From a virus: a stretch of DNA of 20,440 nt. Under the pieces are notes generated by a model that was not told the origin of the DNA, made no database searches, and saw only the letters and a program-made list of their open reading frames with translations. The translations under genes were made by a program, and so were the position numbers. Of the stretch, positions 1,177-16,851 are shown one piece after another (positions within the stretch are counted from its first letter, which is position 1; every line of letters begins with the position of its first letter). The DNA lies in IMG/VR virus record IMGVR_UViG_3300037847_000950, positions 30,417-50,856 of that record. One strand, written 5' to 3'.

Positions 1177-1491
1177 TTACCACTTCACCTTATGCGACCA
1201 GTAACGAGCAGAAAGTTTAGAAGGATTAGAGTCTTGGGCATTATGTCTAGCATAGTAAGATCTTTTACGTGCTTTATCTTTAGCAGTTTTAGGATTCTTA
1301 CCTGCTCCTCTAACGCCTTGTTGACCAAACCGTATAGTTTTTATTTTGTCACCAACTTTTGCTACGACTACATGAGATTTAGTAGGATGATTAGGAGTTC
1401 TTTTAGGTTTGTTATAGCCAGAGACTCCTGCATTTTTTAACCGTGAGTCTTTTTTCTTAGCTTTACTTCCTTTTTTATATTCTTCTCTCAT
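1177..1491 (-). CDS. Lys/Arg-rich small protein, 104 aa, marine-virus family
   Basis: A strongly basic, probably cytoplasmic or virion-associated protein. The N-terminal 35 residues are Lys-rich and low in complexity. Then comes a compact segment, HPTKSHVVVAKVGDKIKTIR, with FGQQGVRGAGKNP, and a C-terminal part with RKRSYYARHNAQ and LSARYWSHKVKW. I recall closely similar 'SHVV... IRFGQQG... ARHN... YWxHKVKW' proteins in many marine phages and some algal viruses, where they are uncharacterised; I will not assign a DUF number. It is the last of three consecutive basic genes. Start at 1491 overlaps the previous stop (ATGA, 1488-1491). Nucleic-acid binding is plausible from charge but is inference. 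Confidence 0.76.
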   Translation of the reverse strand: MREEYKKGSKAKKKDSRLKNAGVSGYNKPKRTPNHPTKSHVVVAKVGDKIKTIRFGQQGVRGAGKNPKTAKDKARKRSYYARHNAQDSNPSKLSARYWSHKVKW

Positions 1492-1730
1492 CGTTTTTTC
1501 CCCTTATGCAGACCATGCCTTGCATGTTGTTTACCTTTTGCAGTTGCTTCTCGTTTCTTTTTATTAGCCGCTGCAAGTTTTTTACGTCCTGCCGCAGTAG
1601 ACTTTAATTTCTTAATAGTTTTAGAAGGTGCATAGACTTCACCAGTTTCTGAAGACTTTTTACCACTAGGAGTTCTCCATTTCTGTTTAGTCCATTTCTT
1701 TAAAGACTTTTGAGATTTTTTAAGTGCCAT
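1488..1730 (-). CDS. Lys-rich small protein, 80 aa
   Basis: About 35% of residues are Lys or Arg (23 K and 5 R counted in 80). The N-terminus has a recognisable pattern, LKKWTKQKWRTPSGKKS, followed by a helix-prone stretch (GRKKLAAANKKKREATAKG) and a His/Lys tail (KQHARHGLHKGKKR). I recall small phage and algal-virus proteins with 'SLKKWTKQKW', possibly the DUF5872-type group, but cannot confirm it. Function is unknown; a DNA-binding or condensing role would fit the charge. It starts on the last base of the preceding stop (TAATG, 1730) and overlaps the next gene as ATGA. Confidence 0.74.
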   Translation of the reverse strand: MALKKSQKSLKKWTKQKWRTPSGKKSSETGEVYAPSKTIKKLKSTAAGRKKLAAANKKKREATAKGKQHARHGLHKGKKR

Positions 1731-1921
1731 TATTTATATCCACCACCTTTTGCTTTATACTGTTTAGCCAGCATCTGAGCCTTACGTGCGCTCCATTGTC
1801 CGGGCTTGCCTCCTTTAGAACCTGCTTTAATTTTATTAAATAGGTTTTTTCTCATAGTAGGTTTAGTATAATTACCAGCTTTATTAACGGTAGATTTTTT
1901 CTTGGTCTTTTTAGTGGTCAT
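1730..1921 (-). CDS. Lys-rich small protein, 63 aa, 'GQWSARKAQ' family
   Basis: The first 14 residues are nearly all Lys/Thr. They are followed by a conserved-looking core, NKAGNYTKPTMRKNLFNKI, then GSKGGKPGQWSARKAQMLAK and a Gly/Lys tail (GGGYK). I recall this 'AGNYTKPxxRKxLFNxIKAG...GQWSARKAQ' family as common in marine phages and without known function. It is the first of the three basic genes in transcription order. An AGGATAA sequence lies just before the ATG and the previous stop is four bases away, so initiation may combine a Shine-Dalgarno with coupling. Confidence 0.75.
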   Translation of the reverse strand: MTTKKTKKKSTVNKAGNYTKPTMRKNLFNKIKAGSKGGKPGQWSARKAQMLAKQYKAKGGGYK

Positions 1922-3767: not shown

Positions 3768-4837
3768 TAAATAACTCCTAAATTAATAGCGACAGGACTT
3801 CCTTCTCCCTCACCGCTACCAAAATGTTTACCTATTGTCCTAGCTTGAGCATATAAGCTTGAACCTGCGCTACGAGCATCTTTTAAATAATCCCAAAAAG
3901 AACCATCAACAGCATTATTAAAATTGTATCTATCTAATATTATCGTTTCACCTTTTTCATTTTTAGTAATACCACCTTGACCTATAAGAGTCTTCATAGA
4001 ATATGAAGCATCTCCTAGTTTACTAAGAAAACTTTTATTGCTTCCTACTGCACTAACATCAGAATACTGATTCCCTCCTTCTTCTTGAGTACCATAATCT
4101 TCGTATTCTATAGCAGAAGATCCTCTTTTTTGTGCTGATTTTACGGCTGATCGTAAAGCATCTATTTCAGAAGTTTTTAAATCTTTTTCTGTTAAAGTAT
4201 TTTCACCACCAAAAACATCATAAACAAGCTGCCTTATATTAGTAGGTACTATTGGCTCGTTTCTTTCTGGTTTAGACATAATTGATTTTTTAGTAGGTTC
4301 ATCTTCTCCAAATAAATAATCAGATGCCCTACCAAAAAAACCACGATCATCTTTTAATTTAATATTTTGACCTACGCTTATCTTACTTCTATTCTTTATT
4401 CCTTTATTTAACTCTGCAAGTTGATCTGGTGTCATATTATTACGTTTAGCAATAGCATTAAAGGTGTCGCCTTTTTGAACTTTATAAGACATTTGAGTTT
4501 CTTTTTTAGGCATGGCTTGAGCTTGAGGAAACAAAGAAAAATTTATTCCTTTTTCTTGTGGTCGCCTTCCAAGGTCTTCTTGAGATCTCATAATCTTTGC
4601 TTGTTGTCGAGCATCTACTAATTGATCTTTAACTCTTGTAAGTGGTTGTTTTTCTTTTGCTTTAATAACTTGTGCTTCCATATTAGGACGATCCATACTT
4701 GGGACAATAATAGAACTACCTGCTTGTATCCTATCAGGATTCATAATTTTATTATCTTTTGCAAGTTTACTCCAAGATGTTCCAAATCTTTTAGCTATAC
4801 CACTTAAAGTATCACCCTTTTTAATGTTATATCTCAT
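3767..4837 (-). CDS. Double-LysM peptidoglycan-binding virion or lysis protein, 356 aa
   Basis: Two LysM domains are clear: residues 2-46 (IKKGDTLSGIAKRFG ... IQAGSSIIVP) and 117-162 (VQKGDTFNAIAKRNN ... ISVGQNIKL). LysM binds the glycan strands of peptidoglycan. They are joined by a charged linker of about 70 residues. The C-terminal 100 residues (SFLSKLGDASYSMKTLIGQG, then DRYNFN and a Gly-rich end) resemble a domain I recall from other phage virion proteins, of unknown role. No catalytic motif is visible, so it more likely positions a virion component or the adjacent M15 enzyme than cuts the wall itself. There is no signal peptide. Start 4837 overlaps the 1827-aa gene stop as ATGA, and an AGAGGA lies about ten bases upstream. 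Confidence 0.84.
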   Translation of the reverse strand: MRYNIKKGDTLSGIAKRFGTSWSKLAKDNKIMNPDRIQAGSSIIVPSMDRPNMEAQVIKAKEKQPLTRVKDQLVDARQQAKIMRSQEDLGRRPQEKGINFSLFPQAQAMPKKETQMSYKVQKGDTFNAIAKRNNMTPDQLAELNKGIKNRSKISVGQNIKLKDDRGFFGRASDYLFGEDEPTKKSIMSKPERNEPIVPTNIRQLVYDVFGGENTLTEKDLKTSEIDALRSAVKSAQKRGSSAIEYEDYGTQEEGGNQYSDVSAVGSNKSFLSKLGDASYSMKTLIGQGGITKNEKGETIILDRYNFNNAVDGSFWDYLKDARSAGSSLYAQARTIGKHFGSGEGEGSPVAINLGVI

Positions 4838-7800
4838 GCTGCTTTTTTCCTCTGTAGTGTTTTTAACAATCCACCTGTCCGAATATTTTGTCTAGGATCT
4901 CCTATATCAAACTCACTAGCCCATGTACTTTTAAATTGATTAGGTTCAAATAAAATATAAGAGTACTTAGGCTTTCTATTTTTTGGAGTTTCAAAAATAT
5001 TTTTATATCTTATTGAGTCGAAGCCAAGCTCTTGTATCATTTCTTTAAACTTATTATTTACATAAGCAAGACGTATTTCATTTTTAGAATTAAATAAAAC
5101 TTGATCTGATTGTTCTAACTCAGTATTATTTTGCACCCAATTAGTATACTTAATTGCTTCCTGTTGAGTTTGTTTTATTTTAGGTAAAATTTGATCTACT
5201 TGCAATGAAGGATTAGCATTAACCATTGATTGAATTAAAACTTTAAGTTGATCTTTATCATAAAGAATATCTTGAGCATTCCATGAACCAAAATCATCTT
5301 CAATAGTTAAAGGCTTTGTAACAAATATATATCCTTTTTTTATTTCAAGAGGAGAAACCTGCTCTAAATCATCAGGAGGTAAATCATTTAAATATTTAAA
5401 TCGATCAACCATACTTTTGTTTATAGCTTCAGCCGTACTATTATGAGTATCAATATCAACATCTAAGCCTCTAGCAGCCATAACTTCTGCTTGCTCTAAA
5501 GGCCCTGCATGCATGCCAGTTTCAAAAGGCATAACTGCTGCTTCTTCAGACTCATGTTTAAATCCATTTTTAGTTGCTCTATAAAAAGGATTTTTTTCAA
5601 CAGATTTTTCTAGCAGTTCTTCAAGATTCATTTCTCTTTCTGCAACAGGTACAGCTAAAAGATCAGCTTCTTTTTTAGTAATGTTCGGAAGTCGAGGCGC
5701 AAAAGTATTTAACATATTTATTTCTTCTGCATCTAATCCATCTATTATTTTTTGAGAGTTTTGATTAGCTGAAACAATCCAATCTTTTTTGTATTGATAG
5801 TAATCTGATGGTCTTTCTTTTTCAATCTGCCTTAATGAACGCTCAGTTTTATAAGTTTTATATTTATCTAATGATGAAGAAGGAGTTTGTCTAGCACCAA
5901 TTCTGTCTAATTCTTCTTGTATAAAAAATCTAAAGTCTTGACCTACTTCTAATAAATCTTCAAGCTCTCCTTCTCTTTCATAATTAGCTATCTCATCATC
6001 AGTGTAACCTCTAGCTTTACTAAAATCACGCCCCATAATTAACTGACCTTGTTCATCAATAAACTCAGGAAACTCATCCTTTAATTCAGCCATTGTTTTA
6101 TCATTTTTTTCATCAATTAAAGACCTAGTAGCTCGTTCGATATACTCACCCATTAAAGGATCTTGAGGCATATCAGGATCACCTGCATAAAATGCGCCTT
6201 CTTCAATATTATTTGCAGCTTCATCTATTTTTGATTGTGGAATATTGGAACCCTTCCGAGTTAGTGCTTTAGTAATAACTCTAGCTAATCCACCTACTAC
6301 AAATTTTTGACGATCTTCAACGTCTTCAAAGGCTTCACCAGCTTGTTCATCATATGGTCGGCCTGTCATTTTATCTATGCGCTCATCAGGTTCTTTAGGA
6401 ACACTAGGCACATCTTCTACGATACCGCCCTTTTCAAAAGGTCTACGTGTTTTATCTTTACCTAAATCTCTCCAAAAATCATCGTAGTCTTTTTTAACAT
6501 CTTCTCCAAAAATAGGTTTAATTGCTCCATAGCCCGGAGTTTTAGATCCTAAAATTGCTAAAGGATTTCCATATGCAAAACCTCTTCCAAGATCTTGTCC
6601 TAATGGCCCTGCTAATCCTGATAAAGCTATTAATTCATTACCTCCAGATGCTTCATAAGATTTTGAAACTCTTTGAAATTGATCTAAAAGAATTCCATTA
6701 CCACCCCAACGAGCTACACCTTCAATAAAAATTTCATAAGGATCTTTATCTTTCATATCAGATTTATCAGATCTTACATAATTTAAACCTACTGCACCTG
6801 CTGTCATAGCCAATGCTGTGCCAATAGTTTGAGATGCAGCATAAGGATTTTTTAAACCTCTTGCAAAGTTTTTTAATACAACATTACTAAACGCAGCAGG
6901 ATAACCCATTAACTGAAAAAGAAAAGATGTTTTAGGATCTGAAATTAATGCAGGTTTAATTGCTGCTCTTCCACTAGTATCAAGTATTACATCTCCTGTG
7001 TATCTTGCCGCACCTCTTTTTATATTGGTATAAAATGGATCTTTTTTATTTACTTCTCCACCATTTCTTTCAATGTATTTTAATCCTTCATCTATATCTA
7101 CATTTAACTCATTTAATTGATCTCGAAATGTTCGTATACGAGCAGATGGTGCTAATGAACCATGATCAGCTATAGCTTTTAAATTTCTATGTATCATAGA
7201 TTTTGAAGTTAAAAAAGAAGTTAATTCTACTAGCCTTGTCCAAGGAGTTAATAAATTACCTTTAAAATATGCATTATTAATAGCTCTAAAACCAGCACCT
7301 CCAATAGAAGCATCTGCTAAACGATCAGCACTAGAAGCTGCTGCATTATCTACAAACATAAAGTTTTCACGCATTTCACTAATAACTTCAGGTTCACTTA
7401 AATTATGTTTAAGTCTTAATCTATCAGCCATTAATTTTGTAATATACTGTGTGCCTGCACCAACAGCATTTGCAAAACCTTTACTGCTTTCAACTAAACC
7501 CGCACGTTGCATATTAATCATAACTTCTGTTAAACTAGAAATAGTTGATAAAGGCAATGTAGCCATACGAGTAAAAGTTACATAAGCATCTCTAGTAAAT
7601 TGTCCTCCGGGGCCGTAATCTTTTAAATCATCTCCTGTCATGCTTCTATATAAATCTAATATATCTTCTCTATCTTGAGGACTAAATTCATTTCCTTTAG
7701 CCTTAACTTGATTAGCTATTCCTTTACCTTCTATATTTCTGTATTGTCTATTACCATTTTCATCTAAAAATGTCCTGCTAAGATCTTTACCATCTATCCA

Positions 7801-10317
7801 TTTTGCTTCAAACTCATCAATATTACGAACACCAAATACATTTACTTTAGCATAAGTTCCTGCGGATTGATTAATATAATTATACATTACATTAGCTACA
7901 TTATTATCAAGAAACTCTTCATATTTATTATCATCAGTAATTTTATCAAATTTTCGTTTAGTAAAAAAACTATTACCAGAGCTATGTAATACATCTGATT
8001 TTTTATCTAACATACCTTCAATTATACCATAAGCTTCTTCTAAATTTGCAGCTTCTCCATCTTCAATTAATAGCTTTGCAAAACGATTAGAACCTGCTCC
8101 CCTACGTTCTTGTCTTTTATTAGGAGAAAAAGGAACATATTTTGTACCATAAAAATCTTTAACTAGTGCAGTACGATCCCATAGTCTAGGAAAATATTTT
8201 AAATCTAACCCTGCATCTAAATTAAAATCATCATTATCTTTTGCAACTTTATCTAAAACTTTAGTTCTAATTTCTAATGCAGCTTTATTAATAAAATCGT
8301 ATTGACTTTCACGACCAAGTAAAGCTCTTTTTAATTCTATATTTAAAACATCTTTTGCAACACCCCTGCCTGCTTCAGTTATAGAGTTCATTGCTTGCAT
8401 AAAAGGAGCATATAAACTTCCTGCATATTCTTTAAAAGTTTCATTGTAGTCAGCTCCTACTGCTTCTGCTTCAGAAGTATAAGTTCGATTAGCATCGAAA
8501 CGCATTTTATTTGAAAGCTCTTTTGCATCTTCTGAGTCATCTGTAAATTTAGTAACTACTTTTGTAGGTCTCCCAAATAAATATTTACCATGTATTTTTT
8601 GAACTGTTTTAGACAAAGAAGCTCTAGCACCATCAGGTGTAATCTGGCCTGTTTCAAGTTGTTGATGAATATCTGCTACTTCATCTATAGTTCGTTGCCC
8701 TGAACCGCCTACTTTTTTAACAAAATCTTCTGCAAAATCTAATGAAATTTGTTCAGGCTGTACTGAATCCATCTCTTGTGCCATACGAATTAATGCATCG
8801 TAATGGTCAACAGCTACATCTTCAACTTGACGAGTTGCTTTAGCTTCTACTCCAGCCATAGCTCTTCCAACTTCTAAGTCAATTTCAGCAAGCTCTTCCC
8901 TATCTTCAACTTTTTTAGCTAGGTCAGCTTCTGCTTGAGCTGTTCTTTCTTGTAAAGCTTTTTCTTTTTCAAATTTCTTTTGTTCCTTCCAAGTTTTAAA
9001 ACCTTCCATAGCTTTTTCTCTAAAGGTTCTTTCTGCATACAAAGGACTATTAGCTGTCTCAGCAATAGTTTCCCAACTTGGAAAATCTCTAGAGGCTTCG
9101 TACTCTAACATTTCTTCTACAATGTCATCTTTATCAAACTCGTAGTCTTTAGCTATTTTTTCAACAACACTATCAGGAACAAACCCGCCATAAAGTCTTT
9201 CATCTCTTTTTTCTAAATTTGTACGTCTTGCCGCAGCCCTAGCTTGCTTTTCTTCAAACTTAGATACTTGAGGAACATTATCTTTTATAGGAATATTTAC
9301 TTTTGTTTCTTCAATAAAGTTATCTATTTCATTATAAAAAGGAAGCATCATTTGATCAGGCTCTACTTCTTCTTTTGTTATTGTAGGTCTATCGTCTATA
9401 GCTACTTCATTTTTTAAACTATCTTCAACAATTTCTTCATCAATCATTTTATTGTGTTCAGTAGCCTCTAATTTACTTTTAAATATTTTAGATGCTCCAA
9501 AACCTATCCCAATTCCTGCTCCTTTTAAACCAACAGGTATAGCACCAGCTACCAAACTAGCACTAAGTATATCCTTTGCAATTTCTCCTGAATCTATTTT
9601 ATCTTGGACATCTAAAGCCATATTTAAATTTTGTTGTCCATAACTAGCTATACCACCATACATTGCACCTGCGGGCATACCTTGAGCCATTAATGCTGGT
9701 ACACTAGTACCTAGTAATTTTTTAATTGCAGGTAAATTGTATCTTGTTGCTAATTTTTCAAGTACATTACGACCTAAAAGACCTGCTCCTGTTCCTATAT
9801 AAGTAATTGGATCTTGTGATATTTGATCAAGCCCACCTGTTACAGCATCGTAAGTTTCCCAAAAACCTTTAACTTTTGTATTTTCAAAAATTTCTCGAAG
9901 TATTTGAGCATCTTGTTTAATATCTTCAGGAGCATCTTTTAGTATACTTGCCATAGCCATAGGATTAAAAAGTTGAAGTTGTTCTCTTCGCAAATGATCT
10001 ACAACATCATCATCATCGTAGCCTCCTTTAAGTTGATTTCTTAAAAAATCAGGAACAGGAATGCTAGGATGTGCTATATACTTTGCCATACCTTCAGAAT
10101 TATTAACATATTCTAAAACTCTTTCGCCTAAATCTAATGGCTTATATCCTTTGTACGAAACATTGTTACGAAAATCAGACATAGAATATTCTTCTGGAGA
10201 AGAATTAATATACTCAGATCTGTGTGTAACATTATCTTTCTGCACCTGTGAAGCAGGTTTAACAGGAGGATAAAAAGAACTGTAATCTGTTTCTTGTGTA
10301 TCGTCAATTATTGGCAT
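4834..10317 (-). CDS. Giant internal/ejection-type virion protein with ART-like C-terminus, 1827 aa
   Basis: By size and position this is the large internal virion protein of a podovirus-like phage, likely ejected into the host. Residues 1-165 are polar. Residues 170-280 are Gly/Ala-rich and hydrophobic. Residues 350-520 are charged and probably coiled coil. Residues 600-1180 form a long helical body with LPLSTISSLTEVMIN (921-935), FQLMGYPAAFSNVVLKNF (1134-1151) and a hydrophobic stretch at 1165-1181. Residues 1292-1345 hold a Gly-Gly motif module (FEKGGIV, DERIDKMTGRPY, VVGGLA). Residues 1575-1805 resemble phage ADP-ribosyltransferase-like domains (FYRATKNGF, GMHAGPLEQA, GFDSIRYKN, SYILFEPNQFKS). 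The protein ends in a basic RTGGLL...RKK tail. It starts directly after the previous stop with no good Shine-Dalgarno, implying coupling. The frame is intact. Confidence 0.82.
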   Translation of the reverse strand: MPIIDDTQETDYSSFYPPVKPASQVQKDNVTHRSEYINSSPEEYSMSDFRNNVSYKGYKPLDLGERVLEYVNNSEGMAKYIAHPSIPVPDFLRNQLKGGYDDDDVVDHLRREQLQLFNPMAMASILKDAPEDIKQDAQILREIFENTKVKGFWETYDAVTGGLDQISQDPITYIGTGAGLLGRNVLEKLATRYNLPAIKKLLGTSVPALMAQGMPAGAMYGGIASYGQQNLNMALDVQDKIDSGEIAKDILSASLVAGAIPVGLKGAGIGIGFGASKIFKSKLEATEHNKMIDEEIVEDSLKNEVAIDDRPTITKEEVEPDQMMLPFYNEIDNFIEETKVNIPIKDNVPQVSKFEEKQARAAARRTNLEKRDERLYGGFVPDSVVEKIAKDYEFDKDDIVEEMLEYEASRDFPSWETIAETANSPLYAERTFREKAMEGFKTWKEQKKFEKEKALQERTAQAEADLAKKVEDREELAEIDLEVGRAMAGVEAKATRQVEDVAVDHYDALIRMAQEMDSVQPEQISLDFAEDFVKKVGGSGQRTIDEVADIHQQLETGQITPDGARASLSKTVQKIHGKYLFGRPTKVVTKFTDDSEDAKELSNKMRFDANRTYTSEAEAVGADYNETFKEYAGSLYAPFMQAMNSITEAGRGVAKDVLNIELKRALLGRESQYDFINKAALEIRTKVLDKVAKDNDDFNLDAGLDLKYFPRLWDRTALVKDFYGTKYVPFSPNKRQERRGAGSNRFAKLLIEDGEAANLEEAYGIIEGMLDKKSDVLHSSGNSFFTKRKFDKITDDNKYEEFLDNNVANVMYNYINQSAGTYAKVNVFGVRNIDEFEAKWIDGKDLSRTFLDENGNRQYRNIEGKGIANQVKAKGNEFSPQDREDILDLYRSMTGDDLKDYGPGGQFTRDAYVTFTRMATLPLSTISSLTEVMINMQRAGLVESSKGFANAVGAGTQYITKLMADRLRLKHNLSEPEVISEMRENFMFVDNAAASSADRLADASIGGAGFRAINNAYFKGNLLTPWTRLVELTSFLTSKSMIHRNLKAIADHGSLAPSARIRTFRDQLNELNVDIDEGLKYIERNGGEVNKKDPFYTNIKRGAARYTGDVILDTSGRAAIKPALISDPKTSFLFQLMGYPAAFSNVVLKNFARGLKNPYAASQTIGTALAMTAGAVGLNYVRSDKSDMKDKDPYEIFIEGVARWGGNGILLDQFQRVSKSYEASGGNELIALSGLAGPLGQDLGRGFAYGNPLAILGSKTPGYGAIKPIFGEDVKKDYDDFWRDLGKDKTRRPFEKGGIVEDVPSVPKEPDERIDKMTGRPYDEQAGEAFEDVEDRQKFVVGGLARVITKALTRKGSNIPQSKIDEAANNIEEGAFYAGDPDMPQDPLMGEYIERATRSLIDEKNDKTMAELKDEFPEFIDEQGQLIMGRDFSKARGYTDDEIANYEREGELEDLLEVGQDFRFFIQEELDRIGARQTPSSSLDKYKTYKTERSLRQIEKERPSDYYQYKKDWIVSANQNSQKIIDGLDAEEINMLNTFAPRLPNITKKEADLLAVPVAEREMNLEELLEKSVEKNPFYRATKNGFKHESEEAAVMPFETGMHAGPLEQAEVMAARGLDVDIDTHNSTAEAINKSMVDRFKYLNDLPPDDLEQVSPLEIKKGYIFVTKPLTIEDDFGSWNAQDILYDKDQLKVLIQSMVNANPSLQVDQILPKIKQTQQEAIKYTNWVQNNTELEQSDQVLFNSKNEIRLAYVNNKFKEMIQELGFDSIRYKNIFETPKNRKPKYSYILFEPNQFKSTWASEFDIGDPRQNIRTGGLLKTLQRKKAA
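4903..5595 (-). other. ADP-ribosyltransferase-like domain inside the 1827-aa protein
   Basis: This encodes about residues 1575-1805. In order: FYRATKNGF (where ART-like polyvalent domains often have YRGT or YHGT), GMHAGPLEQAEVMAARG, GYIFVTKPLTIEDDFGSW, GFDSIRYKN and SYILFEPNQFKSTWA with FDIGDP after it. This series matches, from memory, the pattern of phage ART/polyvalent domains, which typically end in 'GYDxIxY.N ... SYIxFDPxQIKS ... FDPxDP'. Which residues would be catalytic is uncertain: R1580 is a candidate for the first conserved position, and no glutamate is securely placed as the catalytic acid. Activity is therefore unproven. Confidence 0.55.
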
Positions 10318-12051
10318 TTATTTTCGACTCGCAGCATATTGAAGTAACTCAAAAACAGAATAAGTAGCATTATCTTGTGGATTTATATGCATACTTTTAT
10401 CAAATAAATGAGAGTATTCTGGAATATTTTGATAAGAAGTAAATGAATCTAATAAAATATCTAGTCTTCGTTTATCAGAATTTTGAAACTCTTGCATAAG
10501 TTCTTTTGAATTTGCAATTCTTTTTATATAAGACTTTGCTATAGTAACTGTTTTATTAGTTTCTTGAACTGTGCCTAAAGCTTCTAAAATTTCTAAAGGA
10601 CTAGGGCTTGACTTTAATGCGCTTCTATCTAATTCTATAGTATCCTTAAACGTGCCGGGATCAGCAACTCTTCTCATATCATTAAATACAACATTTCGAG
10701 ATATTAATTGAGATAACATATCGTCATTAGTTTCATACGATGAAGTTTTAAATGTATTTTCAATAACGGCTCCATTATAAATAATACTTTTATGAAATGC
10801 TCTAACACTAGCAGTATATTCAGCAGGACTCATATCATCTTTACCTGAAATAGCTAAGTATTCACCTAAAAAATTATCATAATCTTTATGTAATTTTTCA
10901 TCACCACCAACTACAGTAGTTAATGTTTTATAACCATTTCTAAATTGTAAACTTAAATCATCAGCTTCACTATCTGTAACCGATGTTATACCACCCGGAG
11001 CTAAACCAATATATGTATACTCTGGTTTAGCACCTATTATTTGACCAGAACTTTTATCATATATAGTTTTCATAACTTCATTTTGAATCATACCAAGTCT
11101 TGTTACTTGTTTTGCTTCAGTTGTAAAATCCATATTATCTTTTAATATTGCTGCATCTTCAGGATTTTTAGCTTCAATACTTACTCTTTTTCTACCATGA
11201 TCATCTTCTTTAGTAATTTTTGTAACTTCTACTGAAGTTTGTCTACCGTTCTTATATATTGTTTTTATGTCATCTTCTCTATCTATTTCATCATAATCTT
11301 GATCTTTTATTAAATATTGATCTAACATTTTAGCATACTCAGTAGCTTCTTTAACATTATAACCTTTATTCATTGCTTGTTGTGCCAACAACATTGCATC
11401 AGCTTTATTAACAAAATCTGATTCAGCTAAAGCAGCAGCTCTTGCTTGTTGTTTTAAAGCAACAGTATCTTTACCTCTAAAGACATTTCCAATACCTTTA
11501 AAAACTGTACCAATAGCACTGTCAGGTATACCATCATTTAATTCAATATATTTATCAAAAGCTGTTTTATCAGCAGTCATTCTATTGGCTGCATCATTAG
11601 CTTTCATATAAGCAGGTAAAGCTACTTCATCAATATATTTATTAGTTTCTTGCCTTACTAAAGAATCAAAACCATCTTTAGTATAATCTTTTTCATCAAT
11701 TACTTCAAGCAATTTTGTTCGAAACTCAGGCTGTAGTTTATCGTACCACCATCCTTTATGGCCTCCTGCATGAGAAGAAGACTCTGCCCAATTTTGACGT
11801 TGTTGAATACCTGCATCTACTGCTTGATTAAACTTAGCTCTTGCTGCTATAATAGGCTCACGTTGCATAAAGTTAAACGCATTTTTAGCCTGACGAGTTT
11901 CCATAAAGTTTTTGACACCGCCCATAACAGCTTGACCAGCAAACTGCCTAAGCATATCTTTTCTTCTTCTACGTCTATCTTCTTCTCGCCTATCTATACC
12001 TTTTTGTTCGCTTCGTCTAGATAGTTCAGCACCTAATTCATCAATAGCCAT
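10318..12051 (-). CDS. Probable internal or tail structural protein, 577 aa
   Basis: I do not recognise a named family. The first 35 residues are strongly charged, with a run of Arg (REEDRRRRRKD). The body is mainly helical and polar, with a His/Gly/Trp patch near residues 92-103 (SSHAGGHKGWWYDK) and a weakly hydrophobic segment around residues 178-190 (SAIGTVFKGIGNVF). There is no signal peptide, membrane segment or catalytic motif that I can see. It lies directly before the giant protein (stop and start abut at 10318/10317) and after the 171-aa gene (abut at 12052/12051) with AGGAG six bases before its ATG. That position fits an ejection or internal core component. Confidence 0.74.
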   Translation of the reverse strand: MAIDELGAELSRRSEQKGIDRREEDRRRRRKDMLRQFAGQAVMGGVKNFMETRQAKNAFNFMQREPIIAARAKFNQAVDAGIQQRQNWAESSSHAGGHKGWWYDKLQPEFRTKLLEVIDEKDYTKDGFDSLVRQETNKYIDEVALPAYMKANDAANRMTADKTAFDKYIELNDGIPDSAIGTVFKGIGNVFRGKDTVALKQQARAAALAESDFVNKADAMLLAQQAMNKGYNVKEATEYAKMLDQYLIKDQDYDEIDREDDIKTIYKNGRQTSVEVTKITKEDDHGRKRVSIEAKNPEDAAILKDNMDFTTEAKQVTRLGMIQNEVMKTIYDKSSGQIIGAKPEYTYIGLAPGGITSVTDSEADDLSLQFRNGYKTLTTVVGGDEKLHKDYDNFLGEYLAISGKDDMSPAEYTASVRAFHKSIIYNGAVIENTFKTSSYETNDDMLSQLISRNVVFNDMRRVADPGTFKDTIELDRSALKSSPSPLEILEALGTVQETNKTVTIAKSYIKRIANSKELMQEFQNSDKRRLDILLDSFTSYQNIPEYSHLFDKSMHINPQDNATYSVFELLQYAASRK

Positions 12052-12567
12052 TTATTGCTCCTTTCCTAATAAACTTGGAGTTTCTGGTAGTTCTTGAAGT
12101 TTTTGTTCAATCTCAGGTTCTACAGAAGGTTCAACAGGATCTTGAAGTCTTCGAAGGACTTCGAAGTTTGTATTCTTACTTAGTAAAGTTTCTGCTTGAT
12201 CTTCAGCATCATCTGGTGCAATAACAAAATCTATGTCTGCTCGTTCTGCTAAAGCCATCAACATATACACAGTAGGCTCAATTAAAAGCATAACTAAGTC
12301 TGGATTCCATTTGCCTTCATTAAAACCTGAAAACAAAAGAGTTTGTGCAATAGCCATAAGAGGCATACCACCCGCTATTAAACCAAGAATTTCTTCGTAG
12401 CTTTCTTCGCTAGTTATTTGTTCAAATATCCATTCAGAAGCTTCTTTTACTGTATTATACTCAGCAGGTTTTTCACAGGGTAACGGATCATCTGGATCTC
12501 TTGTAAGTGATTCTCCGGGGATTGGCCTATTAAAAGCTACCTTATATAGTTCTTCATTTCCTGCCAT
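12052..12567 (-). CDS. Conserved marine-phage-like hypothetical protein, 171 aa
   Basis: An acidic protein with a Pro-rich N-terminus (RPIPGESLTRDPDDPLP, with CEKP after it). It has two hydrophobic helices at about 61-82 (LGLIAGGMPLMAIAQTLLFS) and 89-108 (PDLVMLLIEPTVYMLMAL) joined by GFNEGKWNP, and an acidic Pro/Glu-rich C-terminal tail. I recall similar 'IPG-sL ... WEKPP ... GFxxGKWNPDLxLLLxEPxxYMLMALAE' proteins beside structural genes of marine phages, without an assigned role. The hydrophobic helices may pack in a helical bundle rather than cross a membrane. The start shares a base with the preceding stop (TAATG at 12567). Confidence 0.76.
   Translation of the reverse strand: MAGNEELYKVAFNRPIPGESLTRDPDDPLPCEKPAEYNTVKEASEWIFEQITSEESYEEILGLIAGGMPLMAIAQTLLFSGFNEGKWNPDLVMLLIEPTVYMLMALAERADIDFVIAPDDAEDQAETLLSKNTNFEVLRRLQDPVEPSVEPEIEQKLQELPETPSLLGKEQ
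12142..12166. repeat. Short inverted/duplicated repeat inside the 171-aa gene
   Basis: The 8-base palindrome CTTCGAAG occurs twice, at 12149-12156 and 12159-12166, two bases apart. GAAGTC at 12144-12149 also pairs with GACTTC at 12157-12162 across a 7-base loop, with two weaker flanking pairs. Either arrangement could fold in the mRNA. It lies within codons for an Arg/Leu-rich stretch (FEVLRRLQ), has no U-tract, and may be chance. Confidence 0.4.
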
Positions 12568-14072
12568 TATGCCATACCTCTTGCTAATCTAGCTCCACCC
12601 ATATCCATCATTAATATTCCTAATGCATCATTCATTGCAGCAGAAGAACCATAAGGATTAAGACCAGCTATTGCATTGCCCATTTCATTTAATGGAGTTG
12701 CTGGTGTAATTTGTTGATAAGGGAATGCATATTCAACAGAACCTCTAGAAGGGCCATAATCAGGATCTTCAGGTGATCCATATATAGCTCTATCTGTTAA
12801 TGCTTGAACACCAGTATTTACAAAACTTTCTCCAAGTTTACCTGTAAAACCAGAAACTTTTTCACCAAAGGTTTCACCAGTAAAACCAAGCTTTTGTTTA
12901 GTTCCTTGGAAAAATTTTCCTACGCGAGATGTAGGTGCTTGTGGACTTAACAATGAACTAAAGTCTGGATCTGGTGCTATAAAAGAAGATGCCTCTCCTG
13001 TTATATCCGTAGGGCTAAATCCAGTTCTAAATCCTGAAGCATCAAAAGAAGAAGGAGAATCTGCTAATTGAAACATGTCAGGACGTTTATAAGTAGGATC
13101 AAGTATACTAATAGTTTTACCAGTTGTCGGAACAACTTGATCTACTTTTGGAGCAAATGTAAACGAATCTTTTACGGAAGCAGTTATATTAGGATCTAAT
13201 AATTGTTCAGTAGAAGGCCCATAAAACTGACCTTCAATTGGACTACCATATCCAGCCATATCATATCCTAAAGTTTGTTGTTGCATTTGAACAGTATCAA
13301 TAGCACCAACATCATAATTCAAAGCTGTTTTAGCTGAATCAGGATCAAGACTTAAATTAACATCTCCGGGTTGAGGGCCTGATATTTGCTGCATAGTTCT
13401 AGCCATGCTATCATTTAACTGTGCAGAAATATTTGATTTAGTTATTGCAGTTTGATTAAAATCTAAATTAATACGAGTACCTTGTTGCAAATTTGTAAAG
13501 TCCATATCAGGGTTTAATCGCTGCAATGTACTTTCAGAAAGCCCTGTTGTTTTACTCATTGATTCAAGAGTCATTCCTTTACCTACAGTTATGTTAGATT
13601 TAAAAGGATCGAATATTCTTTTTGCATCTAACTTAATGCCTTCAAAGACTCCTTCTTTACCAAAGAAATTAGCTTTAGCACTAGAAATATTTATACCCGG
13701 AATTTTATTTAATGCAGTTTTACCAAATTCCATAATACCGCTAGTTACAGTCTTATAAGCATTGACTCCTGCTTGGACAAAACCATGCGCTCCTTTAAGT
13801 ACAGTACCTACGCCTTTAACAACAGTACCTAAAGCACCTCCTGAAAGACCTGCAAACTTACCAGTAAGTGATGCCATATTTCCTGCCATTGCTCCAAAGC
13901 CCTTTAAGAGCGCACCTCCTATCCCCGGTAGGATAAACATCATAGCTAACTGTCCAAGAATACCAATCTTGCCCATAAATTTACCAAACTTTTTAAAGGC
14001 TTTCTTGATTCCTTGACCAATTTTCTTAAAAGCTTTTCGTAAACCTTTTCCTATTTTCTTTAAAAATCCCAT
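12567..14072 (-). CDS. Virion protein with cationic 11-residue repeats and LysM, 501 aa
   Basis: The N-terminus (5-37) is three tandem 11-residue units starting KKIGKG, KKIGQG and KKFGKF, a strongly cationic amphipathic helix like membrane-active peptides. A hydrophobic Gly-rich region follows (38-120, including LAMMFILPGIGGALL and repeated KG steps). Residues 160-205 match a LysM domain (ITVGKGMTLESMSKTTG ... LNPD ... LQQGTRINL). The remaining 300 residues are Pro/Ser/Gly-rich, low in order, and include Phe/Pro motifs. I recall proteins with the 'KKIGKGxxKAFKKIG' start in marine phages as structural proteins. Its place between the 924-aa and ejection genes suggests a tail or ejection component that contacts the membrane and peptidoglycan. 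The start lies four bases after the previous stop. Confidence 0.76.
   Translation of the reverse strand: MGFLKKIGKGLRKAFKKIGQGIKKAFKKFGKFMGKIGILGQLAMMFILPGIGGALLKGFGAMAGNMASLTGKFAGLSGGALGTVVKGVGTVLKGAHGFVQAGVNAYKTVTSGIMEFGKTALNKIPGINISSAKANFFGKEGVFEGIKLDAKRIFDPFKSNITVGKGMTLESMSKTTGLSESTLQRLNPDMDFTNLQQGTRINLDFNQTAITKSNISAQLNDSMARTMQQISGPQPGDVNLSLDPDSAKTALNYDVGAIDTVQMQQQTLGYDMAGYGSPIEGQFYGPSTEQLLDPNITASVKDSFTFAPKVDQVVPTTGKTISILDPTYKRPDMFQLADSPSSFDASGFRTGFSPTDITGEASSFIAPDPDFSSLLSPQAPTSRVGKFFQGTKQKLGFTGETFGEKVSGFTGKLGESFVNTGVQALTDRAIYGSPEDPDYGPSRGSVEYAFPYQQITPATPLNEMGNAIAGLNPYGSSAAMNDALGILMMDMGGARLARGMA
13962..14060 (-). repeat. Three tandem 11-residue cationic repeats (501-aa protein N-terminus)
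   Basis: Residues 5-15, 16-26 and 27-37 align as KKIGKGLRKAF, KKIGQGIKKAF and KKFGKFMGKIG. Positions 1-2 are Lys-Lys, position 4 is Gly in all three, position 3 is Ile, Ile, Phe, and the first two units end in KAF. An 11-residue spacing places the hydrophobic residues on one helical face. Confidence 0.85.
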
Positions 14073-14076
14073 AGTT

Positions 14077-16851
14077 TTATCCTATCCTTCCTCGATTAAT
14101 TATACCATCAATAGTTGAAACTAATTGATCTGGAGTTTTTTTAGATTTTTCTGAAACAGAAGTTTCATTAGCAATAGCAGTAGCATACAAAGTTGTCCTA
14201 CGCTGTTGATCATTTTCATAGGCTTGCCTAAGATACGCTGATTGATCTCTCATTTCTTGCCATATAAAATTTTGTTCTGCGCTACTTATTGCAAAAGCCT
14301 GTTGAGCATTAAGTTGATTTGCAGCATTCTGAGCAGCAGTATCTATTGTATTAGCTTTTCTACGCCACTCTATATTAGATTGCTCGACTGCTTGAGCATT
14401 TTGAGCATTCCATATATCTCGTTGATTTTCAATGTTAGCATTGAATTGATCTACTTGTATATTCATTTGTGTATTAAATTTTTGAGCTTCTAAATTATTT
14501 TGAGCATTTATAGCTTTCATTCGATTGCTTTCAGCAATATTAAATTGCTCCATTGCATTGGCTTGGCTAGTATTAAACTGATTCATATTTGCTTCCATAT
14601 TAGCAAAAAACTGATCTGTTTGATTTTTAGAGGTTGCATTAAATTGTTTTGCAGCATTTGCAGCAGCTTGGTTAGAAAGCATTCTTTGTTGCTTTAGTTG
14701 TTGATCTAAAATAGTAGCCTGTTGCCTGTTATTTAAATTAGCCATATCCATTTGCAAAAAATTATTAGCATTAGTAATAGCTAGTTTAGTTTGTTGATCA
14801 GCGGCTGCAAGATCCATAGTAGCCATTGTAGTTGCATTTTGCATAGCAGATTGTTGACGAGCATTAAAATCAGCGAGTGTTGCATTTTGCATAAATTTAC
14901 TATTTGCTAGTTCGACTTGTTGGGCAGCATTAAACTTAGTCATATCTACTCTAGCAACCATTGCAGCATTTTGAACTGCTCGTTGTTGATCTACGCTTAA
15001 TTGAGCTTGATTCATATCCGCAGCTATTTTAGCAGATGTTAAATTTGTTTGCAATCTTGCATTAAGATTAGCCATCTCAGTTTGTTGAGCTGCACTAAGA
15101 TTTTCAGATTCGTTTTGATTCCTAGAAGTTAAATTAGCAAGTCTCATCTGTTGATCGTTGGTAAGATTTGCAAGTTCCATTTGCTGTTTAAAAGCTGCAT
15201 TCTTTTCTAAGAAACTTGCAGCTATCTGTCGATCTTGTATAAGAGCTTGTTGTTCATTAGAAAGATTCTGTGCCGCTCTTTGTTGTAACGCTGTGGCATT
15301 TGACTGAGCAATAGGCATAGCACTTTGTATAATAGCATTAAATAAAGCATCACGGCCTACTGAAGATGCAGACAAACCTCTTTGAGCCATCATTTGTTCT
15401 ACTGCTGCAATAGCTGGTCTAGCCCATGAAGGAGGCTTACCTTCTTCCATACCTGCTACAAGATTTTCCATTTGAGTAGATACTAGAGCCTCTTTAGGAA
15501 GGGCTGCAACGGCTCCTAAAGATTCTTGGCTTTGGCCTTCTATTTTAAAACCTTCAACGTCTTCCATGATTTGATTAGCTACTTCAGGATCTAAATCATG
15601 ATCAGAAGCAAGTTTATCAGCAGCAGCTTGTTTTGCTTTAGCTCCTTGGACTAAACGAGGCTTCATAGAGTTTCCGAAACCAAACTCATTTATAATCTGA
15701 GCAGCTTCACCATCTGGTGCTGGCATTCCTAGTTGAACTTCTCGTTGTTGTTTTTCAGCAGGATCTGTTTGAACTACTTCTGCAACTCTACCTGTAACTT
15801 TATCAACAAAAGCATCATCTGATATAGTAAAGTCTTGTTTCTGTGCCATAGCTTGTTCTTCAGCTAAAGCATCTCGTCTAGCAGTTTCTACTCTGTTTCT
15901 ATCTCGAAACTCAGGGCCTTCAGCTTCTGCTATTTTAGATACTTCTCCTTGCGCTGCTTCTGTTGCAGGTTGAAAAGTTACAATTCTATCAGCCTCGTAA
16001 GTATTAGCATCAGTTCTGTCTGGAGTAGCCGCAGAACCTGCTGTACCTTGAGAAGCAAAAGGTCGATCAGCACTAACTTTTGTAGGATCAGCAATTTGTG
16101 GCATAGTACCATCAGTAGCTAATTGTTGAACATCTGTACTTATACCTGCTTTAAGTTTATCAGCATCTGAAGACTGTTCTGTAACTGCTCCTACATTTAA
16201 TTTAGAAACATCAGGTTTAGTTGGGGTATAAGTAGGATTATCTTCAGTACCTACTCGACCCATTAATTCTCTTGCAGGATCATTTTTTGTAGGATCAGCA
16301 GCTTCCGCAGCCGCTCTATCTTTTGCTGCTTGTTCTGCTTCTGCATTTACTTTATCAACTTCTGCTTGTTGTTCATCAGTAAGTTCTACAGTTTCACTTA
16401 AATTACTTGGATTATTATACTGCCCCATTCTTCCTCTCCCTGTTTCACCTACTTGAACACTTCTACCACGACTATCTACTTTTCTAGTTGTTCTTGCTTT
16501 ATTTCTAAATGGAGCTGATTGTACTTGAGCTTCTCCTGTACCTTCTATTCCACCAACTTGTTCATTTACTCCTTGTACTGCTCCTGACTGCACTTTGTTT
16601 AGCGCATCTAATCGAGCAGACTCTTCAGCAGAAGGCGTACCTATCTTAGATTGATCTATTTGACCTCGTTTTACAACTTCTTCGTTAGAAGGCTTAGGAG
16701 TAGTTGGATTTTTTTGTTTAGGTATTTTTTTACCACCTCGACCCGTCATGATAGCATCTAGTTCACCAAACTGTCTACCGCCTGTACGCACACTAACACG
16801 CCCACCTTTGCGGTAATCTACTCGTTTTTTAGAAGCTCTTTTTCGTGCCAT
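14077..16851 (-). CDS. Gln/Asn-rich hendecad-repeat structural protein, 924 aa
   Basis: Residues 1-45 are basic with Gly-Gly motifs (RKGGRVSVRTGGRQFGE). Residues 50-400 are polar, Glu/Ala/Thr/Pro-rich and probably disordered or extended. Residues 400-525 are helical (DKLASDHDLDPEVANQIMED; WARPAIAAVEQMMAQRGLSA). Residues 530-850 are a long Gln/Asn/Ala-rich repeat with an 11-residue period, predicting a long right-handed coiled coil. The repeat ends in SNIEWRRKANTIDTAAQN. I recall near-identical repeat proteins in many marine podoviruses and myoviruses as virion proteins of uncertain place, often called tail- or fibre-related. Its long rod could span the tail or periplasm. The ATG at 16851 shares a base with the previous stop (TAATG). 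Confidence 0.8.
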   Translation of the reverse strand: MARKRASKKRVDYRKGGRVSVRTGGRQFGELDAIMTGRGGKKIPKQKNPTTPKPSNEEVVKRGQIDQSKIGTPSAEESARLDALNKVQSGAVQGVNEQVGGIEGTGEAQVQSAPFRNKARTTRKVDSRGRSVQVGETGRGRMGQYNNPSNLSETVELTDEQQAEVDKVNAEAEQAAKDRAAAEAADPTKNDPARELMGRVGTEDNPTYTPTKPDVSKLNVGAVTEQSSDADKLKAGISTDVQQLATDGTMPQIADPTKVSADRPFASQGTAGSAATPDRTDANTYEADRIVTFQPATEAAQGEVSKIAEAEGPEFRDRNRVETARRDALAEEQAMAQKQDFTISDDAFVDKVTGRVAEVVQTDPAEKQQREVQLGMPAPDGEAAQIINEFGFGNSMKPRLVQGAKAKQAAADKLASDHDLDPEVANQIMEDVEGFKIEGQSQESLGAVAALPKEALVSTQMENLVAGMEEGKPPSWARPAIAAVEQMMAQRGLSASSVGRDALFNAIIQSAMPIAQSNATALQQRAAQNLSNEQQALIQDRQIAASFLEKNAAFKQQMELANLTNDQQMRLANLTSRNQNESENLSAAQQTEMANLNARLQTNLTSAKIAADMNQAQLSVDQQRAVQNAAMVARVDMTKFNAAQQVELANSKFMQNATLADFNARQQSAMQNATTMATMDLAAADQQTKLAITNANNFLQMDMANLNNRQQATILDQQLKQQRMLSNQAAANAAKQFNATSKNQTDQFFANMEANMNQFNTSQANAMEQFNIAESNRMKAINAQNNLEAQKFNTQMNIQVDQFNANIENQRDIWNAQNAQAVEQSNIEWRRKANTIDTAAQNAANQLNAQQAFAISSAEQNFIWQEMRDQSAYLRQAYENDQQRRTTLYATAIANETSVSEKSKKTPDQLVSTIDGIINRGRIG
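14302..15264 (-). repeat. Hendecad (11-residue) repeat region in the 924-aa protein
   Basis: The first Q of QQ pairs falls at residues 534, 556, 567, 589, 622, 644, 666 and 710, all multiples of 11 apart; one pair at 686 is out of register. Further on, the residue before Asn in FN/WN/LN motifs falls at 737, 759, 770, 792, 803, 814 and 847, again multiples of 11. The two registers differ by an offset. Confidence 0.85.

What the first reader, a model, noticed from the sequence alone, without database searches (positions are those of the whole stretch)
4903..5595. ADP-ribosyltransferase-like domain at the C-terminus of a probable ejection protein
Residues 1575-1805 of the 1827-aa protein carry an ordered set of motifs (YRATKNGF; GMHAGPLEQA; GFDSIRYKN; SYILFEPNQFKS) that I associate with phage ART/polyvalent domains. 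If the protein is ejected with the DNA, the domain would enter the host at the first moment of infection, like the injected T4 Alt enzyme, but fused to the ejection machinery itself. This is the best candidate here for an undescribed system. The motifs are seen; the family match is from memory; injection and activity are inference.
Basis: partly seen in the sequence, partly recalled or inferred. Interest (0 to 1): 0.75.

Follow-up and report, generated by a model that had tools for sequence, protein, structure and literature searches.

The report
ADP-ribosyltransferase-like tail on phage ejection protein
A marine virus of bacteria, related to the very abundant HMO-2011 group, carries at the end of one of its internal virion proteins a domain built like enzymes that tag other proteins with ADP-ribose; it is strongly conserved across dozens of uncultured relatives and probably enters the host cell with the viral DNA, although neither its activity nor its delivery has been tested.

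Summary
In detail: all four motifs lie exactly where stated (residues 1579-1797 of an 1827-aa protein). The domain is a divergent relative of ART-PolyVal (PF18760), the NAD-dependent ADP-ribosyltransferases of phage polyvalent proteins. It misses the Pfam cut-off (15.6 vs 31.2 bits), but a profile built without its own clade scores it 48.7 bits, against 17.5 for the best of 5000 shuffles. A compact relative models confidently (pLDDT 92), with its best PDB match the anti-CRISPR ADP-ribosyltransferase AcrIF11.

Thirty-six non-redundant relatives keep a candidate active site: R1580 (32/36; histidine in most of the wider family), E1599, H1603, D1767, Y1771, N1773, E1776, S1786. Close pairs show dN/dS of about 0.08-0.16. 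The preceding core is homologous to LUZ24 gp50, a phage particle protein, so virion location is well supported. Injection and catalysis remain inference.

The phage is HMO-2011-like. Seven cultured HMO-2011-type isolates lack the domain; all eight long uncultured contigs whose portal gene was recovered carry both.

Virion-borne ART-PolyVal domains were predicted in 2017, so this is a new variant of a known kind: an arginine-for-histidine clade fixed to an ejection-type protein. Most likely it is an injected enzyme modifying a host protein early in infection.

The parts
4834..10317 (-). Gene for the 1827-aa ejection-type virion protein (core plus C-terminal ART-like domain)
   Evidence: ORF; phrog_7348 E 7.5e-104 and phrog_6958 'virion structural protein' E 1.9e-20
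6598..8700 (-). Core, residues 540-1240: homologous to LUZ24 gp50 and other LUZ24-/KPP25-like virion proteins
   Evidence: tblastn; extended core profile hits LUZ24 gp50 at 104 bits, E 3e-33
4873..5604 (-). ART-like domain, residues about 1572-1815
   Evidence: PF18760 sub-threshold, clade-free profile, AlphaFold2 model, 36-member alignment
5578..5580 (-). R1580, motif I on strand 1 (histidine in most ART-PolyVal domains)
   Evidence: R in 32/36 clade members, N in 4; H in 80 and R in 6 of 88 distinct domains of the set
5503..5523 (-). Motif II E1599-x-G-x-H1603-x-G1605 on strand 2
   Evidence: E1599 36/36, H1603 35/36, G1605 36/36
4990..5019 (-). Motif D1767-x-x-x-Y1771-x-N1773-x-x-E1776
   Evidence: D, Y, N 36/36, E 35/36; also invariant across 19 sequences that include histidine-type relatives
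4927..4962 (-). S1786-Y-I-L-F-E-P-N-Q1794-F-K1796, last core strand
   Evidence: S, F, Q 36/36, K 33/36
5029..5277 (-). Variable mostly helical insert (about residues 1681-1763) between the central strands and the D motif
   Evidence: Helices at 141-223 of the model; much shorter in relative L047
3767..4837 (-). Next gene, 356 aa: two LysM repeats plus a conserved C-terminal domain; overlaps the 1827-aa gene by 4 nt and is fused to it in relatives
   Evidence: Pfam LysM, blastp, architectures
10318..16851 (-). Upstream late genes of 577, 171, 501 and 924 aa, probably other internal virion or ejection proteins
   Evidence: Position and weak tape-measure-like hit of the 501-aa protein; inference

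Best explanation
The C-terminal ~245 residues form an ADP-ribosyltransferase-fold domain, a divergent arginine-for-histidine clade next to ART-PolyVal, carried by a LUZ24-gp50-like internal virion protein of an HMO-2011-like podovirus. During infection the protein, or the part holding the domain, leaves the virion with the DNA. In the host cytoplasm the domain binds NAD+ through R1580, E1599 and H1603, with D1767, E1776 and S1786 around the reaction centre, and transfers ADP-ribose to a host protein, either for early take-over (as T4 Alt) or against a defence protein (as AcrIF11). Shown: sequence kinship, predicted fold (through a homologue), conserved candidate site, purifying selection, core homologous to a phage particle protein. 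Inferred: ejection, NAD chemistry, target.
For: Clade-free ART profile 48.7 bits vs 17.5 for the best of 5000 shuffles; closest homologue L002 22 bits to PF18760, E 2.9e-4. Reciprocal profile finds ART-PolyVal phage domains, including Tunturi_5. Model core pLDDT above 90 with strands at the motifs; viral fold library returns PolyVal-ART-named proteins. Compact relative (pLDDT 92.4) matches AcrIF11 6kyf (E 9.3e-6) and a cyanophage A4 pre-ejectosome chain 9k3a_B (E 3.6e-5), then PARP4, RES toxins, tankyrase and diphtheria toxin. Candidate site conserved in 36 members. dN/dS about 0.08-0.16 in most informative pairs. Core homologous to LUZ24 gp50, annotated as a phage particle protein. AcrIF11 requires D115, and H20/Y46 and D146/E147 in its homologue (PMC12421852). 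Core and ART in one ORF in about two dozen contigs, adjacent ORFs in others.
Against: Below the PF18760 cut-off. The window's own model matches no solved ART significantly (best E 1.5; PARP4 at 4.8). Motif I histidine is arginine and motif II tyrosine is histidine. The PARP-type glutamate position appears to be serine (S1786; by motif order, from memory). No virion proteomics for this phage or its close kin. The domain is absent from cultured HMO-2011-type isolates, so it is not needed for infection in that group.
Confidence: 0.6

Rival explanations
1. RES-like or other NAD+-consuming enzyme: the domain has the ART fold but hydrolyses or phosphorolyses NAD+ instead of modifying a target, so the injected protein drains or remodels host NAD+.
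For: RES toxins MbcT (6fkg) and P. putida Xre-RES (9r35) are among the fold matches of the compact relative; R1580, E1599 and S1786 are near-invariant, loosely recalling the Arg-Glu-Ser of RES (from memory).
Against: No Pfam hit other than PF18760 pointed to an NAD enzyme, none to RES. AcrIF11, a transferase, is the far stronger match. The order and spacing of the invariant residues follow ART-PolyVal.
Confidence: 0.15
2. Pseudo-enzyme: an ART fold that lost catalysis and now serves as a structural, folding or ligand-binding module of the ejection protein.
For: H-to-R and Y-to-H changes at canonical positions; R becomes N in one subclade; position between core and LysM part is fixed.
Against: Polar pocket-type residues D, Y, N, E, S, E and H are kept at 35-36 of 36 while the helical insert varies freely, which suits a binding or catalytic site better than a scaffold; relatives without the domain are viable isolates.
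Confidence: 0.17
3. The domain works outside the cytoplasm, at the envelope, together with the LysM module that follows it, for example during passage through the periplasm.
For: The domain usually precedes LysM or C-terminal modules, fused or as the next gene.
Against: NAD+ is a cytoplasmic cofactor (general knowledge); in several phages the LysM part is a separate gene (window, L002, L108), so the two need not travel together.
Confidence: 0.05

Closest known systems
ART-PolyVal (PF18760), Tox-ART-HYD2 clade in phage polyvalent proteins (Iyer et al. 2017, PMC5512222)
   Same: Ordered motifs (strand-1 YH/YR-G/A-T, GxHxG, NPL, GYDGIxYxNxxE, SYIxFxPxQxKS), location in large virion-type phage proteins, nearest by profile
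   Different: Below the curated cut-off; strand-1 histidine is arginine throughout most of this clade; long helical insert; fixed behind one particular virion core
AcrIF11, anti-CRISPR ADP-ribosyltransferase (6kyf)
   Same: Best PDB fold match of a compact relative; strand-5 acidic residue needed for activity
   Different: Stand-alone small protein, not part of a virion protein; H/Y/D-E site rather than R/H/D; fold match is for relative L047, not for the window's own model
Pseudoalteromonas phage vB_Pun_Y3 ORF31 (PMC11654794)
   Same: ART-PolyVal-type domain fused to a structural-type core; that core matches the core of the clade member L110
   Different: ART is N-terminal and histidine-type ('VLYHGS'); the authors treat it as an auxiliary metabolic gene; the window's core profile does not hit it
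LUZ24 gp50 and Bruynoghevirus particle proteins
   Same: Homologous core (104 bits)
   Different: 1055 aa, no ART domain detected
T4 Alt
   Same: Proposed logic: ART delivered with the DNA
   Different: R-S-E clade ART, a separate head protein, not fused to an ejection-type protein
Roseovarius Plymouth podovirus 1 vRNAP ART (CBX87992)
   Same: ART-PolyVal domain inside an injected virion protein
   Different: Canonical histidine; host protein is an N4-type RNA polymerase

Membership tests
ART-PolyVal (PF18760) | Score above the curated gathering cut-off (31.2 bits) | tested here: not met
   15.6 bits for the window domain, 22.0 for L002
ART-PolyVal (PF18760) | Strand-1 histidine of the H-Y-D signature | tested here: not met
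   R1580; R in 32/36 of the clade. A Tunturi_5 domain over the cut-off also has R there
ART-PolyVal (PF18760) | Strand-2 tyrosine of the H-Y-D signature | tested here: not met
   H1603 in 35/36; the Tunturi_5 domain at 69 bits also has H there
ART-PolyVal (PF18760) | Strand-5 aspartate of the H-Y-D signature | tested here: met
   D1767, 36/36
ART-PolyVal relatives (superfamily level) | Statistically significant profile relationship | tested here: met
   48.7 bits vs 17.5 for the best shuffle, own clade excluded
ART fold | Fold match to solved ART structures | tested here: inconclusive
   Own model: none significant. Compact homologue L047: AcrIF11 E 9.3e-6, PARP4 E 1.1e-2
ADP-ribosyltransferase (activity) | NAD+-dependent ADP-ribosylation | not testable with these tools
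   Needs biochemistry
Phage ejection protein | Present in the virion | tested here: inconclusive
   By homology only: core matches LUZ24 gp50, annotated phage particle protein
Phage ejection protein | Leaves the virion into the cell | not testable with these tools
   Needs infection experiments
T4 Alt/ModA (R-S-E clade) | Sequence relation to Alt/VIP2-type ARTs | tested here: not met
   No Alt/VIP2-type Pfam hit; PF18760 is the best biologically meaningful hit
ART toxin-antitoxin pair | Neighbouring eraser or antitoxin (macrodomain or ADP-ribosylglycohydrolase) | tested here: not met
   No PF03747 or PF01661 in 17 records including the window's

The most novel reading that the evidence does not exclude
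A large uncultured lineage of HMO-2011-like phages injects, as part of its own DNA-delivery protein, a catalytically active ART of a distinct R-(E)-H-D type that modifies a specific host protein at the first moment of infection, while the cultured members of the group lack it.
Probability: 0.45. Interest if true: 0.68.

Novelty: new variant of a known kind. Interest (0 to 1): 0.5.

Why it matters
[quoted passage not shown] A word search of that survey found an ADP-ribosyl hydrolase in some members but no transferase. If the domain is active, an uncultured part of this group delivers a host-modifying enzyme with its genome, and the near-invariant residues (R1580, E1599, H1603, D1767, E1776, S1786) give a direct mutational test. 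It also extends ART-PolyVal to a clade in which arginine replaces the strand-1 histidine, which bears on how ART active sites interconvert.

Tried and rejected
(1) Direct Pfam and NCBIfam hits: only sub-threshold PF18760; other weak hits (UBA_2, Gmx_para_CXXCG, PqqC, slr1796) are not credible. (2) Sequence searches of the PDB with single proteins and profiles: no significant ART hit; a histidine-type profile touched KptA at E 0.27. (3) The first profile test wrongly included two close relatives, L083 and L101; repeated without them. The candidate loci were chosen with patterns partly derived from the window's own family and confirmed against Tunturi_5. (4) Isolates carrying the clade: none found among seven HMO-2011-type isolates (HMO-2011, HTVC115P, HTVC104P, HTVC033P, CRP-13, CRP-738, CRP-1) or in LUZ24 and HTVC027P (positive control); bacterial genome contigs gave no relative. 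(5) Anabaena phage A-4L, perhaps the phage of 9k3a or a relative of it, shows no ART by profile and the structure paper is not held, so that match stays a lead. (6) Toxin-antitoxin reading: no eraser gene found. (7) Reading the PARP-type catalytic glutamate onto S1786 is by motif order only; no coordinates were available to superpose.

Full report
WHAT WAS CLAIMED AND WHETHER IT IS THERE. The 1827-aa ORF at 4834-10317 (-) and its four motifs are exactly as described, each occurring once. Pfam sees only a weak ART-PolyVal match (PF18760, 15.6 bits, E 0.03, cut-off 31.2; 22.0 bits and E 2.9e-4 in the homologue L002).

FAMILY RELATION. I collected phage ART domains from viral contigs and Tunturiibacter phage Tunturi_5, which has several PF18760 domains over the cut-off. 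A profile built from these, with every then-known member of the window's own clade removed, gives the window's C-terminus 48.7 bits; the best of 5000 shuffles reaches 17.5 and the reversed sequence 3.9. The score comes mostly from the second half of the domain. The first-half motifs are placed by alignment with the closest subfamily, which reads YH(G/A/S)T ... GxHxGT ... NPL ... GYDGIxYxNxxE ... SYIxFxPxQxKS. In the reverse direction, the clade's own profile finds those phage ARTs, including Tunturi_5.

STRUCTURE. The AlphaFold2 model of residues 1541-1827 is moderate overall (pLDDT 74.5, pTM 0.73), but the core blocks exceed 90. Strands fall on YRAT, MHAG, YIFVTK, SIRYK and YILF, with a large helical insert before the D motif. 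Against the PDB it gives nothing significant; against predicted viral structures it gives ten matches below 1e-3, and PolyVal-ART-named proteins from 2e-3. The histidine-type compact relative L047 models at pLDDT 92.4. It matches the anti-CRISPR ADP-ribosyltransferase AcrIF11 (6kyf, E 9.3e-6), a chain of the cyanophage A4 pre-ejectosome (9k3a_B, E 3.6e-5), and more weakly PARP4, RES toxins, tankyrases and diphtheria toxin. The ART fold is therefore reached for the window domain through homology, not by its own model.

CANDIDATE ACTIVE SITE. A further search, whose patterns did not touch motif I, gave 36 non-redundant clade members. R1580 is R in 32 and N in 4; E1599 36/36; H1603 35/36; G1605 36/36; D1767, Y1771 and N1773 36/36; E1776 35/36; S1786 and Q1794 36/36. 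In the wider set motif I is H in 80 of 88. On a tree built without that column the 36 rows form one group (SH-aLRT 89) with histidine-type domains beside it; R appears elsewhere independently and N once (many long branches, so only the broad pattern is reliable). Close pairs show dN/dS of about 0.08-0.16 in most informative comparisons. AcrIF11 needs its strand-5 acidic residue (D115) and, in a homologue, H20/Y46 and D146/E147 (PMC12421852). Equating R1580, H1603 and D1767 with these positions follows motif order and is inference.

THE CARRIER PROTEIN. Residues 540-1240 are homologous to virion proteins of LUZ24-like and KPP25-like phages; an extended core profile hits LUZ24 gp50, annotated as a phage particle protein, at 104 bits. 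The next gene (LysM-LysM-conserved domain) overlaps by 4 nt and is fused to the ART-bearing protein in relatives. Core and ART share one ORF in about two dozen contigs (some near-duplicates) and sit in adjacent ORFs in others (L118, L131, L133-135, L145, L152, L153). Presence in the virion is thus well supported by homology; ejection into the cell is inferred from the class of protein.

THE PHAGE. Terminase, portal, major head protein, tail proteins, DNA polymerase and primase-helicase are recognisable. The portal is 63% identical to Pelagibacter phage HTVC115P and 50% to HMO-2011, so this is an HMO-2011-like phage. Seven isolates of that type (HMO-2011, HTVC115P, HTVC104P, HTVC033P, CRP-13, CRP-738, CRP-1) have neither the clade nor any PF18760 domain (positive control). 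Of 13 other contigs with the domain, eight held a portal, all 61-81% identical to the window's; the other five are 22-36 kb fragments in which no portal was found.

MECHANISM. Best reading: an injected ART acting on a host protein early in infection, either take-over like T4 Alt or counter-defence like AcrIF11. I put about 0.95 on kinship with ART-PolyVal, 0.85 on virion location, and 0.6 on an active enzyme working inside the host. Rivals are an NAD+-consuming RES-like activity, and a pseudo-enzyme. No macrodomain or ADP-ribosylglycohydrolase gene was found in these phages, which argues against a toxin-antitoxin arrangement.

COMPARISON AND NOVELTY. ART domains of the H-Y-D type in polyvalent proteins packaged and injected by phages were predicted in 2017 (PMC5512222), with an N4-type RNA polymerase carrying one. 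Pseudoalteromonas phage vB_Pun_Y3 ORF31 has a histidine-type ART in front of a core that matches the core of clade member L110. What is new here is the arginine-for-histidine clade, its fixed link to one virion core, and its spread in uncultured HMO-2011-like phages; the 2022 survey of that group mentions an ADP-ribosyl hydrolase but, by word search, no transferase. It fails the PF18760 cut-off and two of the three signature residues, so I file it as a divergent relative and not as a curated member.

Noticed in passing
L024:250-2052 (-) (G002:C1 about 7084-7602): In relative G002 the gene after the portal begins with a second, histidine-type ART-PolyVal domain over the Pfam cut-off; the window phage's counterpart (L105:9194-9760) lacks that part. 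Some of these phages may carry two virion ARTs.
   Followed up: partly
P0003 residues 1720-2150 (L004 large ORF): Extra conserved domain between ART and LysM ('LLIDELQSD...'), seen in P0003 and P0005, without a Pfam match; looks like another polyvalent-protein domain.
   Followed up: no
L013:5395-5844 (HTVC115P gp46): A gene annotated toxin-activating lysine-acyltransferase lies among the late genes of HTVC115P.
   Followed up: no
PP885688.1 (Tunturi_5), L014-L023: One jumbo phage carries eight ART-PolyVal domain matches in several large ORFs, one of them with arginine at motif I and over the cut-off.
   Followed up: partly
window 1177-1921: Three consecutive small very basic (K/R-rich) proteins of 104, 80 and 63 aa, possibly DNA-binding or virion proteins.
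   Followed up: no
window 12567-14072: The 501-aa late protein has a weak LysM-like stretch (residues 161-202) and weak tape-measure hits, so peptidoglycan-binding motifs occur in two of the internal-type proteins.
   Followed up: no
L139, L140, L143, L147: A subclade in which R1580 is replaced by asparagine while the rest of the site is kept; a natural variant for testing the role of that residue.
   Followed up: partly
PDB 9k3a_B: A chain of a podophage pre-ejectosome structure matches the ART model of L047; whether the authors recognised an ART there could not be checked.
   Followed up: partly
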